Below are positions 8,856 through 63,910 of a stretch of 64,000 bases of DNA, one piece after another. Where the stretch lies: positions 62,001 through 126,000 of the forward strand of contig JACJGO010000016.1 in assembly GCA_014163555.1 (NCBI GenBank), read 5' to 3'. Below the pieces are notes generated by a model. The model did no database searches. It was not told the origin of the DNA and saw only the letters and a list, made by a program, of their open reading frames with translations. Within the stretch, counting starts at the first letter, position 1. Each line of letters begins with the position of its first letter. The position numbers and the translations under genes are program-made. The stretch is from Flavisolibacter longurius (GTDB lineage: Bacteria; Bacteroidota; Bacteroidia; Chitinophagales; Chitinophagaceae).

Positions 8856-9377
8856 ATGAAAAAGATATTCTTCGCTGTCGGAACGGTTGTTATCATGGCT
8901 TCTTGTAGTCAGAACAATCCAAGAACAGAAACAGATACATTAACGCTGCGTCCGGCTGATACAGCAGGTCTGGCCCAGTTCCAGGCTTGGAAGGCGCAAA
9001 ACGAGCTGGCTACGGCGCAGGCTTTGCAGGCGCAACAAATGGAAGCCCAGCAGCCTGTACGGGAAGTGGTAAGGGAACGGGTGGTTTATGTAAACGAGCC
9101 TCGTAGCACGGCCCGTCGATCAAGCAGTACAGCCCGCCGTTCGTCCTCGGGTAGCAATGGGACTTATAGCTCAGGCAATACCAGTACCGCCCAACAGAAA
9201 AAAGGCTGGAGTAAAGCTGCCAAGGGTGCTGCCATTGGTGGTGCCGGTGGTGCTGTGGTAGGTGCGGTAGTAAATAAAAGAAACCGTGCTGTTGGTGCCG
9301 TGATTGGTGGTGTAGTTGGTGGTGCCGTGGGTTACGGTATAGGTCGCTCACAGGATAAAAAAGATGGCAGGTACTAG
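8856..9377 (+). CDS. Lipoprotein with glycine-zipper C-terminus
   Basis: A 173-residue lipoprotein precursor: MKKIFFAVGTVVIMASC, Cys17 as lipidation site. Residues ~20-70 are Ala/Gln-rich, ~80-115 are Arg/Ser/Thr-rich low complexity, and ~120-165 form a glycine zipper (GAAIGGAGGAVVGAVVN, GAVIGGVVGGAVGYGIG), the pattern of YMGG/Gly-zipper_2 envelope proteins. It ends in a polar tail, KDGRY. Probably embedded in or spanning an envelope membrane; role unknown. Confidence 0.85.
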   Translation: MKKIFFAVGTVVIMASCSQNNPRTETDTLTLRPADTAGLAQFQAWKAQNELATAQALQAQQMEAQQPVREVVRERVVYVNEPRSTARRSSSTARRSSSGSNGTYSSGNTSTAQQKKGWSKAAKGAAIGGAGGAVVGAVVNKRNRAVGAVIGGVVGGAVGYGIGRSQDKKDGRY

Positions 9378-61095: not shown

Positions 61096-61184
61096 TCCTC
61101 CTTAGTCCCGCATGTGCGGGATTGGTTAGAGTCCCGGACGTCCGGGATTAATCAGAGGGTCGTTGGTTCAAGTCTTGAGAGGAA
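61096..61184 (+). pseudogene. tRNA-Asn-like remnant carrying two palindromes
   Basis: Begins TCCTCCTTAG and later has TAATCAGAGGGTCGTTGGTT like the intact tRNA-Asn copies, but the D-arm is replaced by TCCCGCATGTGCGGGA (61106-61121) and the anticodon arm by TCCCGGACGTCCGGGA (61132-61147), so the anticodon is gone. The 3' end is changed to CTTGAGAGGAA. The new end still pairs with the 5' end: TTCCTC (61095-61100) with GAGGAA (61179-61184). It cannot be a normal tRNA but might fold as a tRNA-like RNA. Confidence 0.7.
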
Positions 61185-61319: not shown

Positions 61320-61393
61320 TCCTCCTTAGCTCAGTTGGTTAGAGCATCTGACTGTTAATCAGAGGGTCGTTGGTTCAAGTCCAACAGGGGGAG
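61320..61393 (+). tRNA. tRNA-Asn (GTT), copy B, attachment-site candidate
   Basis: Identical 74-base tRNA-Asn; the spacers before copies A and B also resemble each other, so the region arose by tandem duplication. Its 3' half is the end of the recombinase reading frame on the other strand, the classic position of an integration site. The terminator is at 61405. Confidence 0.95.
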
Positions 61394-62909
61394 CCTCACT
61401 AGACAAGCCGGCATTTTTGCCGGTTTTTTTGTTTTTCGCTCCTTTGGAACCCTTGCCAGACCTGCACAGTAGCGGAATGAGAGGGTTTTCTTTTATGGTT
61501 CGATAGGTTTTATTTTCAAAAATCAGTTTTTCGGGAAACATCGAACCAATCAGCTGTTGCTTTACGGGTAAAGTGCCCTCCCGGTATAGCTCGTCCAGCT
61601 TTTTAAAGAACCGCCTGCCATAGGCAAGCATCTCATCCAGGTCATCAGCGTCCTGAGAAAGGTTTCTTAGCCTGCTTTCCAGCTGATTAACCAGCGGCTC
61701 ATACCGGCTTTTGATTTCTTTGTAATCTGATGGCTCCAGGGTGCCATCCAGGAGCAGTTGCTGTGCATTGGTAAGCCTTTCCCTATTTTTCTGCAGTTCA
61801 GCCCTTAGCTTTTGCGCCTCCTGCTCTGCAGTGTGCCCGCCGCTTTGGTAAAGTGAAGCTGCAAAATGCTCCAGCACCTTCAAACAAGCGCCATTGAAGG
61901 TTATCTCCCGCAGCTTTTCTGCGAACAACTTATTCGCCTCCTCTGCTTTAAAGCGTTCACCACATTTAGCGGTGCAGTGATAATAAAAGTACTTTCCTCC
62001 GTTTCCCTTCGAGCTGCTGCCGGTAAGCTTACTCCCGCACCTGGGGCAGATCAGGTGACCTCGGAGCGGAAACTCCTCCCTTGCGTTTTGTTTGGTGGGC
62101 CAGGCCCTTCTTCTTCCTGCCATCACTGCCTGCACGTCCTCGAAGAGTTCTTCGCTGATGATAGGCTCATGCCGGCCCTTTACCACTTGCTCGGGTTCAT
62201 CTTTATAGGCAGGCAAATAAATTCTTCCGCAATAAAATGGATTGCGGATAAGAAGGTAATAATTGGCTTTGGCGCAGCTAAGCCCTCTTTTCATCGCCTC
62301 CTGCCGCACGGCTTCTGCACTCGAGATACCGCTGGAGAGTTCTTCAAAGATCCACCGCACAAGAGGAGCCTTTTCGGATTGAACCACCACCGGCTGGTTT
62401 TTTTCATTCCGTGCATTTTTATAGCCAGTGGGAGCGCTGCCCACCCACCGGCCTTCTTTTTTTGCTCTGCGCATGCCGGCAACCGTATTAAGGGCTCTTC
62501 TGTCGTTTTCTACTTCGGGGGCAGCGAGGTAAAACGCCAGCATAATCTTGTTCTCTGGAATATTAAGGTCAAGGGGCTGCTCAATGGCTTGTGGCTCTAC
62601 ACCCAGCCTGTTAAGGTGACTGATCATACCATAAGCGTCAGCTGCATTGCGGGAAAAGCGGTCCCACTTTAAAAACAGTAGCAGGTCCGCAAGCTTTCTT
62701 TCCTTTTTTAGTCGTTGCAGTAGCCTGGTAAACTCCGGCCGCTCAAAGGTCTTGGCGGAAAAGTCTTCTCGATAGAAGCCTACTACCTGGATGTTTTGCA
62801 GTTCGCAGTAGTTGCGTAGGCGTTCTTCCTGGTGCTGTAAGCTAAAGCCTTTGTCAGCTTGCTCGTCTGTGCTCACCCGTACATAAATGATTGCTCGTTT
62901 CTGTGCCAT
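61359..62909 (-). CDS. Large serine recombinase of an integrated element
   Basis: A 516-residue serine integrase. The resolvase catalytic domain has the nucleophile in YVRVSTDEQ (Ser13), then DLLLFLKWDRFSRNAADAYG and ENKIMLAFYLAAPEVENDRRAL. A recombinase domain follows at ~150-260 (WVGSAPTGYKNAR, RNPFYCGRIY). The zinc ribbon is CPRCGSKL ... YHCTAKC (~295-330). A coiled coil lies near 355-430. The C-terminal tail (EAPPVGLEPTTL) is coded by the complement of tRNA-Asn, so the gene reads into the attachment site. Strand exchange between attP and the tRNA site is inferred. Confidence 0.92.
   Translation of the reverse strand: MAQKRAIIYVRVSTDEQADKGFSLQHQEERLRNYCELQNIQVVGFYREDFSAKTFERPEFTRLLQRLKKERKLADLLLFLKWDRFSRNAADAYGMISHLNRLGVEPQAIEQPLDLNIPENKIMLAFYLAAPEVENDRRALNTVAGMRRAKKEGRWVGSAPTGYKNARNEKNQPVVVQSEKAPLVRWIFEELSSGISSAEAVRQEAMKRGLSCAKANYYLLIRNPFYCGRIYLPAYKDEPEQVVKGRHEPIISEELFEDVQAVMAGRRRAWPTKQNAREEFPLRGHLICPRCGSKLTGSSSKGNGGKYFYYHCTAKCGERFKAEEANKLFAEKLREITFNGACLKVLEHFAASLYQSGGHTAEQEAQKLRAELQKNRERLTNAQQLLLDGTLEPSDYKEIKSRYEPLVNQLESRLRNLSQDADDLDEMLAYGRRFFKKLDELYREGTLPVKQQLIGSMFPEKLIFENKTYRTIKENPLIPLLCRSGKGSKGAKNKKTGKNAGLSSEAPPVGLEPTTL
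61405..61430 (+). terminator. Terminator of the tRNA-Asn cluster
   Basis: Stem CCGGCA / TGCCGG with flanking A-T pairs, loop TTTT, followed by a T-run. It is also coding sequence of the recombinase C-terminus on the other strand. Confidence 0.75.
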
Positions 62910-63135
62910 GTGCTTGTGTGTTTAGCGGTATTACTTTTGCCCTGTGTCGTAAGCTGCTCATATAAAAATCATAGTAGATTTTGGAGAGCTTAAACAGGAA
63001 GTTTCTCATCTGGATAAGGTCTTCAACACTGTATCCATAGGCTTCTGCTTCAAAGAGTTTTCTGCACTGCTCTAGGGAAAGCTGCTCAGCGGATACGTTT
63101 TTTGCTCCATTTAGGTTGATGACTTTGGCTTTCAT
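62854..63135 (-). CDS. Small protein overlapping the recombinase start (possible directionality or control factor)
   Basis: A 93-residue protein, MKAKVINLNGAKNVSAEQLSLEQCRKLFEAEAYGYSVEDLIQMRNFLFKLSKIYYDFY, then a basic tail. It has a helical core, no export signal and no family I recognise. It overlaps the first 56 bases of the recombinase gene, so the two are translationally coupled. Regulators and recombination directionality factors of serine integrases are often small proteins next to int, but this is only a positional guess. The ATG at 63135 fits the promoter at 63150. Confidence 0.6.
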   Translation of the reverse strand: MKAKVINLNGAKNVSAEQLSLEQCRKLFEAEAYGYSVEDLIQMRNFLFKLSKIYYDFYMSSLRHRAKVIPLNTQAHGTETSNHLCTGEHRRAS

Positions 63136-63149
63136 AGGTGTGTACAAGG

Positions 63150-63180
63150 CTAATATAATTGATAATCAATCGTTTACAAA
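63150..63180 (-). promoter_or_regulatory. Promoter with palindromic operator-like spacer
   Basis: On the minus strand, TTTG (63180-63177), a 19-base spacer, then TATATTAG (63157-63150). The spacer holds the perfect 13-bp palindrome ATTGATAATCAAT (63158-63170). A repressor bound there would block polymerase. Likely the promoter of the small-protein/recombinase operon. Confidence 0.6.
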
Positions 63181-63219
63181 ATAAAAGAAGAAAGTTTCAG
63201 TGGACTAGGGAGGGGCAGT

Positions 63220-63228
63220 TGTGGAAAA
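63220..63228 (-). promoter_or_regulatory. DnaA box-like site (TTTTCCACA)
   Basis: TGTGGAAAA on the plus strand; complement TTTTCCACA fits the TTWTNCACA DnaA consensus. Confidence 0.5.
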
Positions 63229-63328
63229 CGAGTGGTTCATAGCGGTATTTTTATTGCTAAAAGTATTAGCATTCCTGAGGAAGAGCAAGTAATTTTGTTC
63301 ACAGGCGCGGTGGTAGCGTGCAGTCAGG

Positions 63329-63405
63329 ATAAGAGTTCAATAAGAAAAGCATAAGAACAGGATAAGACTTCCATAAGAGCTCCCTAAGAGTTGAATGAGG
63401 TTACC
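63329..63405 (+). repeat. Phased 11-bp ATAAGA iteron-like array
   Basis: ATAAGA starts at 63329, 63340, 63351, 63362 and 63373, CTAAGA at 63384 and ATGAGG at 63395, exactly 11 bases apart, with variable 5-base spacers. All sites therefore face the same side of the DNA helix. The array is 47 bases upstream of the gene at 63452. Confidence 0.85.
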
Positions 63406-63430
63406 ATTAAAAATACATGCAGCACCCCAT

Positions 63431-63439
63431 TGTGGATAA
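63431..63439 (-). promoter_or_regulatory. DnaA box (TTATCCACA)
   Basis: TGTGGATAA on the plus strand, a perfect match to the strongest DnaA box, between the iteron array and the gene at 63452. Confidence 0.6.
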
Positions 63440-63451
63440 ATAATGTAAGCA

Positions 63452-63910
63452 ATGATGAAAGAAGAAAACCTGCGCTTCAGGCAACGGAAAAAGGAACGAG
63501 AAAGGGTTTATAGCCAACAAGAAGTGGATGTGCTGCTCAAAGAAAAGCAGCATCAGCTAGACGTGCAGTATTCTGTACTCAAAGAAGTGTATGAAAGCTA
63601 CCAGCGCTTCAGCGTGGAACACGAAGAGCTAAAAGAAAAGTTGGCCAGGTATGAGGCTCCAGATGATGGCTATAGAAAAGACTGGACCTGGGTCGCCAAG
63701 ATTGTCTTTGTACTCGAAAAAGCAGGAAGAGCCATGCGTTCCGCTGAAATCATTGAGGTGCTGGAAAAGCGGGAAGCGCATCTCAGGGAACACAGCTCAA
63801 AACAGCAGTACTTTTCTGCCTTTATTCATATGGCACTAAAGGCAGAACGGATCAAACGAGAAAAGCGAAAAGGGGAAAGAGGCTTCTACTATCACATAAG
63901 GCAAATCTAA
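63452..63910 (+). CDS. Coiled-coil/winged-helix-like DNA-binding protein, unknown
   Basis: A 152-residue basic protein. Residues ~15-70 form a coiled coil (YSQQEVDVLLKEKQHQLDVQYSVLKEVYESYQRFSVEHEELKEKLARY). Residues ~80-150 look like a winged helix: WTWVAKIVFVLEKAGRAMRSAEIIEVLEKREAHLREHSSKQQYFSAFIHMALKAERIKREKRKGERGFYYHIR (HARE-HTH-like). A dimer that binds DNA is likely, and its position behind the phased repeats and DnaA box makes autoregulation or a replication/maintenance role plausible. I do not recognise a Rep family. Two ATGs (63452, 63455) are possible. Confidence 0.7.
   Translation: MMKEENLRFRQRKKERERVYSQQEVDVLLKEKQHQLDVQYSVLKEVYESYQRFSVEHEELKEKLARYEAPDDGYRKDWTWVAKIVFVLEKAGRAMRSAEIIEVLEKREAHLREHSSKQQYFSAFIHMALKAERIKREKRKGERGFYYHIRQI

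What the first reader, a model, noticed from the sequence alone, without database searches (positions are those of the whole stretch)
63220..63910. Iteron-like origin: DnaA boxes, helically phased ATAAGA repeats and a DNA-binding-like gene
Five ATAAGA plus CTAAGA and ATGAGG recur at exactly 11-base steps (63329-63400), so all face one side of the helix. Two DnaA-box matches (63220, 63431) bracket them, with A/T-rich DNA between, and a coiled-coil/winged-helix-like gene starts 13 bases later. This is the layout of plasmid or ICE origins, but the protein does not resemble a known Rep, so a new replication or partition system in the integrated element is possible.
Basis: partly seen in the sequence, partly recalled or inferred. 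Interest (0 to 1): 0.75.

Follow-up and report, generated by a model that had tools for sequence, protein, structure and literature searches.

The report
Phased operator array of integrative elements
A row of DNA repeats spaced exactly 11 bases apart, next to a small DNA-binding protein gene, is a conserved part of a family of chromosomal mobile elements that often carry anti-phage genes, and it looks more like a control switch for those elements than an origin of replication.

Summary
In detail: six T(A/T)AGA units stand exactly 11 bp apart at 63329-63389, followed by a degenerate seventh, a perfect DnaA box (63431-63439) and a 152-aa gene modelled as long helix plus winged helix. The array goes with that gene: T(A/T)AGA distances upstream of 33 homologues peak at 11, 22, 33, 44 and 55 bp (17 of 33 have a phased pair). 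The gene sits in mobile elements: 20 of 34 homologue loci have a large serine recombinase nearby, in 10 of the first 19 ending in or across a tRNA gene, with restriction-modification, BREX, AbiE, Lamassu-like or toxin cargo in those examined. Against an origin: 7 loci have a further array before the integrase operon, one before a cargo operon; arrays often follow or overlap promoter-like TAnnTTTG boxes; two family members matched no plasmid or phage record. Best reading: a winged-helix regulator coats phased operators to control itself, the integrase and some cargo. A DnaA-type box conserved in the five closest relatives keeps a replication role open. Binding, oligomerisation and regulation are inferred, not shown.

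The parts
61320..61395 (+). tRNA-Asn; left attachment site, its 3' end GGGGGAGC is shared with the inferred right end
   Evidence: ARAGORN; a relative has the tRNA pair without the element (L080); right junction at G000:C27 about 5538
61359..62909 (-). large serine recombinase (integrase), 516 aa; reading frame ends inside the tRNA gene
   Evidence: Pfam Resolvase 8.6e-29, Recombinase 2.6e-14, Zn_ribbon_recom 1.7e-7; PHROG integrase 5.2e-84
62854..63135 (-). small ORF (93 aa) overlapping the integrase start; recurrent companion of the integrase, function unknown
   Evidence: ORF list; small-ORF clusters 2, 6 and 11 next to the integrase
63158..63170 (.). palindrome ATTGATAATCAAT in front of the integrase operon, candidate operator
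   Evidence: read in the sequence; same or near-identical motif upstream of the integrase operon in L004, L005, L051, L054, L071; by eye, no statistics
63219..63228 (+). DnaA-box-like TTGTGGAAAA, one mismatch
   Evidence: read; not an exact match
63255..63271 (.). palindrome TGCTAA-AAGTA-TTAGCA, candidate operator
   Evidence: half-sites invariant in the alignment of the five closest relatives, A5
63290..63297 (+). TAATTTTG, Bacteroidota-type -7 promoter element (TAnnTTTG, consensus recalled)
   Evidence: TA(A/T)TTTTGTTCACA in 5 of 5; TAnnTTTG 6.7-fold enriched upstream of homologues
63329..63405 (+). phased array: seven 11-bp units, core T(A/T)AGA (the last one ATGAGG)
63431..63439 (-). DnaA box TTATCCACA between array and gene
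   Evidence: TTGTGGA(T/A)AA at this place in 5 of 5 closest relatives, exact box in 4 of them
63452..63910 (+). gene for a 152-aa protein: long helix (22-65) plus winged helix (75-148); proposed to bind the array
   Evidence: AlphaFold2 mean pLDDT 80.9; generic winged-helix matches in the PDB, best E 0.019, none at E <= 0.001

Best explanation
The array is an operator, and the adjacent gene encodes the regulator that binds it. The family belongs to integrative serine-recombinase elements of Chitinophagaceae and relatives, often sited at tRNA genes. Each winged-helix domain would occupy one 11-bp unit, on nearly one face of the DNA, and the N-terminal helix would link subunits into a cooperative filament. 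The array lies just downstream of, or over, the candidate promoter of the protein's own gene; in compact elements this stretch is shared with the divergent integrase operon, and in seven loci a further array stands before the integrase operon, in one of them a third before a cargo operon. Occupancy would set the protein's own level, integrase supply (integration or excision) and some cargo, most simply as an autorepressor. Shown here: conservation, exact spacing, positions, gene neighbourhoods. Inferred: binding, oligomerisation, sign of regulation.
For: Exact 11-bp phasing (pair distances 11 x30, 22 x22, 33 x14, 44 x10, 55 x7; 10 x0, 12 x2 over 33 upstream regions; 17 of 33 have a phased pair). 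A matrix made only from units upstream of the winged-helix genes (74 units, 17 loci) finds arrays before the integrase operon in L060, L062, L065, L066, L067 and L130 within 800 bp and in L063 at 782 bp. Of 229 control upstream windows 3 reach the same score of 13: one is the cargo operon of L053, two share one run in L003. TAnnTTTG upstream of homologues is 6.7-fold over background, in 23 of 33 loci; at -148 to -165 in six close relatives and at -50 to -62, within a repeat, in L053, L059, L061, L063, L068. Winged-helix model. Precedent for oligomeric winged-helix regulators on direct repeats: BldC (passages), RdfS (passages).
Against: No binding or expression data. 16 of 33 homologues show no phased pair (mostly distant ones, but also L060, L062, L066-L068). 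In 5 loci where other genes also lie between integrase and winged-helix gene (L005, L054, L055, L056, L071) no integrase-side array was seen; I count them as compact because those genes read in the integrase direction, but the one intervening gene of L066 does too. An operator reading does not explain the conserved DnaA-type box. In the close clade the array lies downstream of the candidate promoter, an unusual place for cooperative repression. The motif was chosen after seeing the sequences. In L062 and L063 the integrase-side array is 620 and 780 bp from the operon. 10 of 33 upstream regions have no TAnnTTTG.
Confidence: 0.6

Rival explanations
1. One reading: array plus DnaA box is a replication origin of the excised circle and the winged-helix protein is a minimal initiator.
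For: DnaA-type box between array and gene in 5 of 5 closest relatives, exact in 4; exact TTATNCACA in the 400 bp upstream of homologues 8 in 13,061 bp against 16 in 418,449 bp elsewhere, 16-fold (five of the eight boxes are in one clade). The small elements L005 and L050 show no other replication gene by inspection. An array match without the gene in G064 (C130) has an exact TTATCCACA about 30 bp after it. SCCmec, an element with a recombinase of this type, encodes a primase-helicase pair (PMC7581432, search listing only).
Against: Arrays recur before integrase operons in 7 loci and before one cargo operon, and no exact DnaA box was noticed in the printed integrase-side stretches (by eye); tblastn of two family members finds nothing in 72,556 plasmid and 50,697 phage records; no Rep similarity; exact DnaA boxes upstream in only 7 of 33 homologues.
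Confidence: 0.15
2. The protein is a recombination directionality factor: it forms a filament on the array, near the integrase gene, and drives excision, with regulation as a by-product.
For: RdfS is a winged-helix directionality factor that oligomerises and also activates promoters (passages); the gene is a frequent companion of the integrase and in L069 lies on one strand with it.
Against: In the window the array is about 1.9 kb from the attachment site; serine integrases generally need no accessory DNA array (recalled); the small ORF overlapping the integrase start is an equally good directionality candidate; one array precedes a cargo operon.
Confidence: 0.13
3. Centromere-like partition site (parC/tubC type) with a winged-helix adaptor.
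For: ParR and TubR systems use direct repeats of about this length (recalled); TubR appears at rank 49, E 0.11, in the viral fold search.
Against: No partition NTPase recognised beside the gene in the 24 neighbourhoods printed (by inspection only); several arrays per element near operon starts; the elements are integrated.
Confidence: 0.05

Closest known systems
BldC (Streptomyces)
   Same: Winged-helix regulator on variable-length arrays of direct repeats, one subunit per repeat, head to tail (passages of PMC5859096).
   Different: BldC repeats are 9 bp; it is MerR-like, 68 residues, without a coiled coil (abstract), and a developmental regulator; no sequence-family match here.
RdfS of ICEMlSym(R7A)
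   Same: Oligomeric winged-helix protein with an extra N-terminal helix, encoded by an integrative element, acting on excision and on promoters (passages of PMC11963761).
   Different: Binds attP next to a putative arm site of the integrase IntS, and is described among factors of tyrosine recombinases; no 11-bp array appears in the passages read.
SCC cassettes with Ccr serine recombinases
   Same: Integrated cassettes mobilised by large serine recombinases; the window recombinase's best NCBIfam match is CcrB (5.7e-39, but 134 bits against a cut-off of 900).
   Different: Target is a tRNA gene here, not rlmH (recalled); no cassette primase-helicase genes recognised in the stretches read; the array plus winged-helix module is not a known SCC part (recalled).
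Iteron origins of plasmids and ICEs
   Same: Phased direct repeats, a nearby DnaA box and a gene for a DNA-binding protein.
   Different: Repeats are only 11 bp and recur before other operons, the protein is no known Rep, and two family members were not found on plasmids.

Membership tests
Iteron-type replication origin with Rep initiator | tandem direct repeats at helical spacing beside the gene | tested here: met
Iteron-type replication origin with Rep initiator | DnaA box in the origin | tested here: inconclusive
   DnaA-type box in 5 of 5 closest relatives, exact in 4; exact box upstream in 7 of 33 homologues
Iteron-type replication origin with Rep initiator | initiator of a known Rep family | tested here: not met
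   no Pfam, PHROG or NCBIfam match below E 0.01 for the window protein, no PDB sequence match at E <= 0.1 for the profile
Iteron-type replication origin with Rep initiator | found on autonomously replicating DNA | tested here: not met
   two family members, tblastn, no match in plasmids or phages; viral contigs, no confirmed relative. Limited: two queries and the collections named
Iteron-type replication origin with Rep initiator | supports autonomous replication | not testable with these tools
   needs a plasmid assay
Head-to-tail winged-helix regulators (BldC/RdfS type) | winged-helix fold | tested here: met
   AlphaFold model and fold search
Head-to-tail winged-helix regulators (BldC/RdfS type) | direct-repeat operators at its own and other promoters | tested here: inconclusive
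   positions fit; no promoter or binding was measured
Head-to-tail winged-helix regulators (BldC/RdfS type) | sequence relation to MerR/Xis-like domains | tested here: not met
   no such Pfam match
Head-to-tail winged-helix regulators (BldC/RdfS type) | cooperative head-to-tail oligomer on DNA | not testable with these tools
   needs EMSA, footprinting or a structure
Large serine recombinase integrative element | resolvase, recombinase and zinc-ribbon domains | tested here: met
Large serine recombinase integrative element | defined integration site with empty-site counterpart | tested here: met
   tRNA-Asn 3' end; empty site in G014; right junction at G000:C27 by 98% match over 51 bp; C7 and C27 are not joined in the assembly
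Partition site (parC/tubC) with adaptor | partner NTPase gene | tested here: inconclusive
   none recognised by inspection of neighbourhoods; not searched by profile

The most novel reading that the evidence does not exclude
A single winged-helix protein and exact 11-bp phased arrays form an element-wide switch for tRNA-integrated defence islands that is read out by the host's DnaA: in the close clade the conserved DnaA-type box beside the array lets DnaA, as replication origin factor or as transcription factor, decide when the element is expressed, excised or copied. That would be a replication-coupled control system for defence cargo, possibly including a minimal origin with an initiator of a new kind.
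Probability: 0.15. Interest if true: 0.8.

Novelty: new variant of a known kind. Interest (0 to 1): 0.5.

Why it matters
It gives a readable sequence signature (exact 11-bp phased T(A/T)AGA units plus a coiled-coil winged-helix gene) for a family of serine-recombinase elements that carry anti-phage systems in Bacteroidota, often at tRNA genes, and a testable idea of how such elements keep integrase and some cargo under one control. If the DnaA box is functional, it would tie the behaviour of such islands to the host replication cycle.

Tried and rejected
Known family: Pfam, PHROGs and NCBIfam give no significant match for the window protein; the profile gives no PDB sequence match at E <= 0.1. 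A weak YabA match of the L053 protein (6.8e-4, far below its cut-off) lies in the coiled coil and was not taken as homology. Known RNA: two sub-threshold Rfam matches (E 0.65, 0.95) outside the array, rejected. Plasmid or phage relatives: none for two queries. Viral contigs: 32 pattern matches, none confirmed. Right end by tRNA repeat: no long direct repeat downstream in the window's element; found instead through the empty site.

Array without gene: of 13 pattern matches in 16 genomes (4 for the reversed control pattern), 12 lie in arrays already known and one in G064 (C130:9119) has no winged-helix homologue, serine recombinase or tRNA in the 19 kb fetched, but an exact TTATCCACA at 9176. 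I take it as chance because a few matches are also seen with the control pattern; it is the one result that would fit an array-plus-DnaA-box unit without the gene. An array-like run in L003 left of its tRNA was also taken as chance.

Rows dropped: L052 (a copy of L051 near a contig end with broken frames) and the 3' half in L051 were left out, hence 33 of 34 loci. L059 (truncated recombinase) and L069 (same-strand layout) were left out of the compact/separate sorting.

Errors of mine: one search failed on wrong coordinates, recomputed and rerun in other sets; one search used a wrong stretch of L049 and was redone. I also first gave the integrase-side arrays as 7 of 7; that rests on my sorting, so it is now told as 7 of 12 with the sorting stated, and the confidence went from 0.62 to 0.60.

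Full report
What is there. The window is stretch 62001-126000 of contig C7 in its genome; the named relatives found by protein search are Flavisolibacter nicotianae. At 63329-63405 lie seven 11-bp units: ATAAGA five times, CTAAGA, ATGAGG; six of them form an unbroken exact 11-bp T(A/T)AGA chain, the only chain longer than one unit in the window. None of 1000 dinucleotide shuffles equals the count of 6 or the 14 phased pairs. A perfect DnaA box, TTATCCACA, follows at 63431-63439 and a 152-aa gene at 63452-63910.

The gene product. AlphaFold2 with four sequences (window, L003, L004, L005) gives mean pLDDT 80.9, pTM 0.48, a long helix 22-65 and a winged helix 75-148. Foldseek against the PDB finds generic winged helices (Fur, forkhead, TFE, RTP), best E 0.019, none at E <= 0.001; against viral models the best is E 0.0017, also none at E <= 0.001. 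No family library names it.

Family and array. The protein was found in 8 of 148 relatives (single sequence), 20 of 294 family genomes, 10 of 396 order genomes (stricter cut-off) and 2 of 395 phylum genomes, both of the window's genus. The groups overlap and only a capped number of candidates per genome was scored, so these are lower bounds. I used 34 loci of 3.6 to 16 kb. In the 260 bp upstream of 33 of them, distances between T(A/T)AGA motifs are 11 (30 times), 22 (22), 33 (14), 44 (10), 55 (7), against 10 (0), 12 (2), 21 (2), 32 (4), 43 (5). 17 of 33 have at least one phased pair; 16 have none, mainly distant homologues. The spacing is 11 rather than 10.5, so sites drift slowly round the helix; this suggests neighbour contact between bound units rather than helix phasing alone (inference).

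The elements. A large serine recombinase occurs within range in 19 of 34 loci and in a twentieth after fetching more of contig C71 (L053/L130). In 10 of the 19 its reading frame ends in or runs through a tRNA gene (L002 Asn, L003, L049 and L050 Ser, L005 and L063 Ala, L055 and L069 Val, L060 Met, L071 Gln); in L054 a tRNA-Arg lies 384 bp away, in L066 a tRNA-Ala 276 bp away with a 34-bp copy of its 3' end inside the frame; in 7 (L004, L051, L056, L059, L062, L065, L067) no tRNA was found in the fetched stretch. The window's element starts at the 3' end of tRNA-Asn. A relative, G014, has the same tRNA pair without the element (L080). The sequence that follows the tRNA there is found in the window's genome at C27:5539-5589 (98% over 51 bp), preceded by GGGGGAGC. 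If C7 and C27 belong together, the element holds at least 14.9 kb plus 5.5 kb, with an unknown gap. Pfam on 11 of its proteins gives a LuxR-type response regulator, DUF5977 and DUF6443 proteins, a pretoxin-HINT protein with an HNH nuclease toxin domain and a tyrosine recombinase near the right end; 6 have no match. No rep, par, mob or tra gene was recognised. Cargo elsewhere: 19 proteins that I picked as likely defence genes all match PADLOC models at E <= 1e-5, one of them only a WYL regulator; among the rest are BrxA/B/C (L049), type I restriction or modification subunits (L005, L050, L053, L054), AbiE (L056, L060), type IIG with SNF2 helicase (L055, L063), SNF2 helicases (L066) and LmuB (L067). 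This is a selected set, not a rate.

Position of the arrays. In L002, L003, L004, L049, L050 and L051 the winged-helix gene and the small ORF-integrase pair diverge from one intergenic stretch that holds the array. In 12 loci other genes lie between: L005, L053/L130, L054, L055, L056, L060, L062, L063, L065, L066, L067, L071. A matrix built only from units upstream of the winged-helix genes (74 units, 17 loci) finds a run of score 13 or more upstream of the integrase operon, on its strand, in 7 of these 12: six within 800 bp (13.7 to 22.7) and L063 at 782 bp (18.6). In the other five (L005, L054, L055, L056, L071) no integrase-side array was seen; there the intervening genes read in the integrase direction and may form one operon with it, so that the gene-side array is shared; but the single intervening gene of L066 also reads that way. 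Shuffled sequence gives 4.3 runs of score 13 or more in 431 kb, both strands, against 32 observed. Of 229 control upstream windows 3 reach 13: one is the cargo operon of L053, which holds a run of 22.3 (sequence); the other two share one run in L003 outside its element.

Promoter context. TAnnTTTG, the Bacteroidota -7 element (recalled), occurs 24 times in 8,580 bp upstream of homologues (23 of 33 loci) against 351 in 845,860 strand-bp elsewhere. In six close relatives it lies at -148 to -165, before the array; in L053, L059, L061, L063 and L068 at -50 to -62, within a repeat; elsewhere at other distances or absent (10 loci). In the five closest relatives the palindrome TGCTAA-N5-TTAGCA, the -7 element with GTTCACA, and TTGTGGA(T/A)AA are conserved around the array. 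L005 and L050, next in similarity, lack the box at that place.

DnaA box. Exact TTATNCACA occurs 8 times in 13,061 bp upstream of homologues (7 loci) against 16 in 418,449 bp elsewhere (binomial p 3.4e-7, not corrected for relatedness: five of the eight boxes are in the close clade). This is the best argument for a replication role, and the operator model does not explain it. A gene-less array match in G064 with a DnaA box about 30 bp after it points the same way, but single matches also occur with the control pattern.

Interpretation. The data fit an operator array for an element-encoded winged-helix regulator better than an origin. BldC and RdfS show that small winged-helix proteins can polymerise along direct repeats and control promoters, RdfS also excision (passages read). 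Whether the protein represses or activates, and whether it also acts in excision, cannot be told from sequence. I put 0.60 on the regulator, 0.15 on origin and initiator, 0.13 on directionality factor, 0.05 on partition.

Literature. Searches for serine recombinases with tRNA targets and defence in Bacteroidota, in Chitinophagaceae (no paper), for 11-bp direct repeats with winged helix and integrase (no paper) and for serine integrase with winged helix and direct repeats listed no paper whose title or abstract start describes this module; this covers only the open-licence library, and one search listed 8 of 22 papers.

Noticed in passing
61118-61183: A decayed third copy of tRNA-Asn sequence just before the two intact tRNA-Asn genes, suggesting repeated insertions at this site (self-match).
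   Followed up: no
L113:4212-5294 (G000:C27): A tyrosine recombinase gene within about 250 bp of the inferred right end of the window's element, at the opposite end from the serine recombinase.
   Followed up: no
L113:1006-2499: Pretoxin-HINT protein with a C-terminal HNH/EndoVII nuclease toxin domain and unknown small genes beside it; polymorphic-toxin cargo.
   Followed up: partly
L148:9119-9184 (G064:C130): Three exact 11-bp T(A/T)AGA units followed by an exact TTATCCACA about 30 bp on, with no winged-helix homologue or serine recombinase in 19 kb; probably chance.
   Followed up: partly
L051 (G003): An IS21-type insertion splits a homologue of the winged-helix gene; a second copy of the region near the contig end (L052) has broken frames (IS type by inspection).
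   Followed up: no
L064 (G159): A homologue with a seven-unit array lies beside excisionase-like HTH genes and a relaxase-like gene, with no serine recombinase seen nearby: the module may also occur in a mobilisable element (names by inspection).
   Followed up: partly
L060, L062, L063, L065, L066, L067, L130, integrase side: A conserved non-coding stretch (around GTGTGCCAATTGTAGTAC) follows the integrase-side array in these elements; function unknown.
   Followed up: no
L069 (G157): Here the winged-helix gene, small ORF and integrase lie on one strand, with no clear phased array.
   Followed up: no
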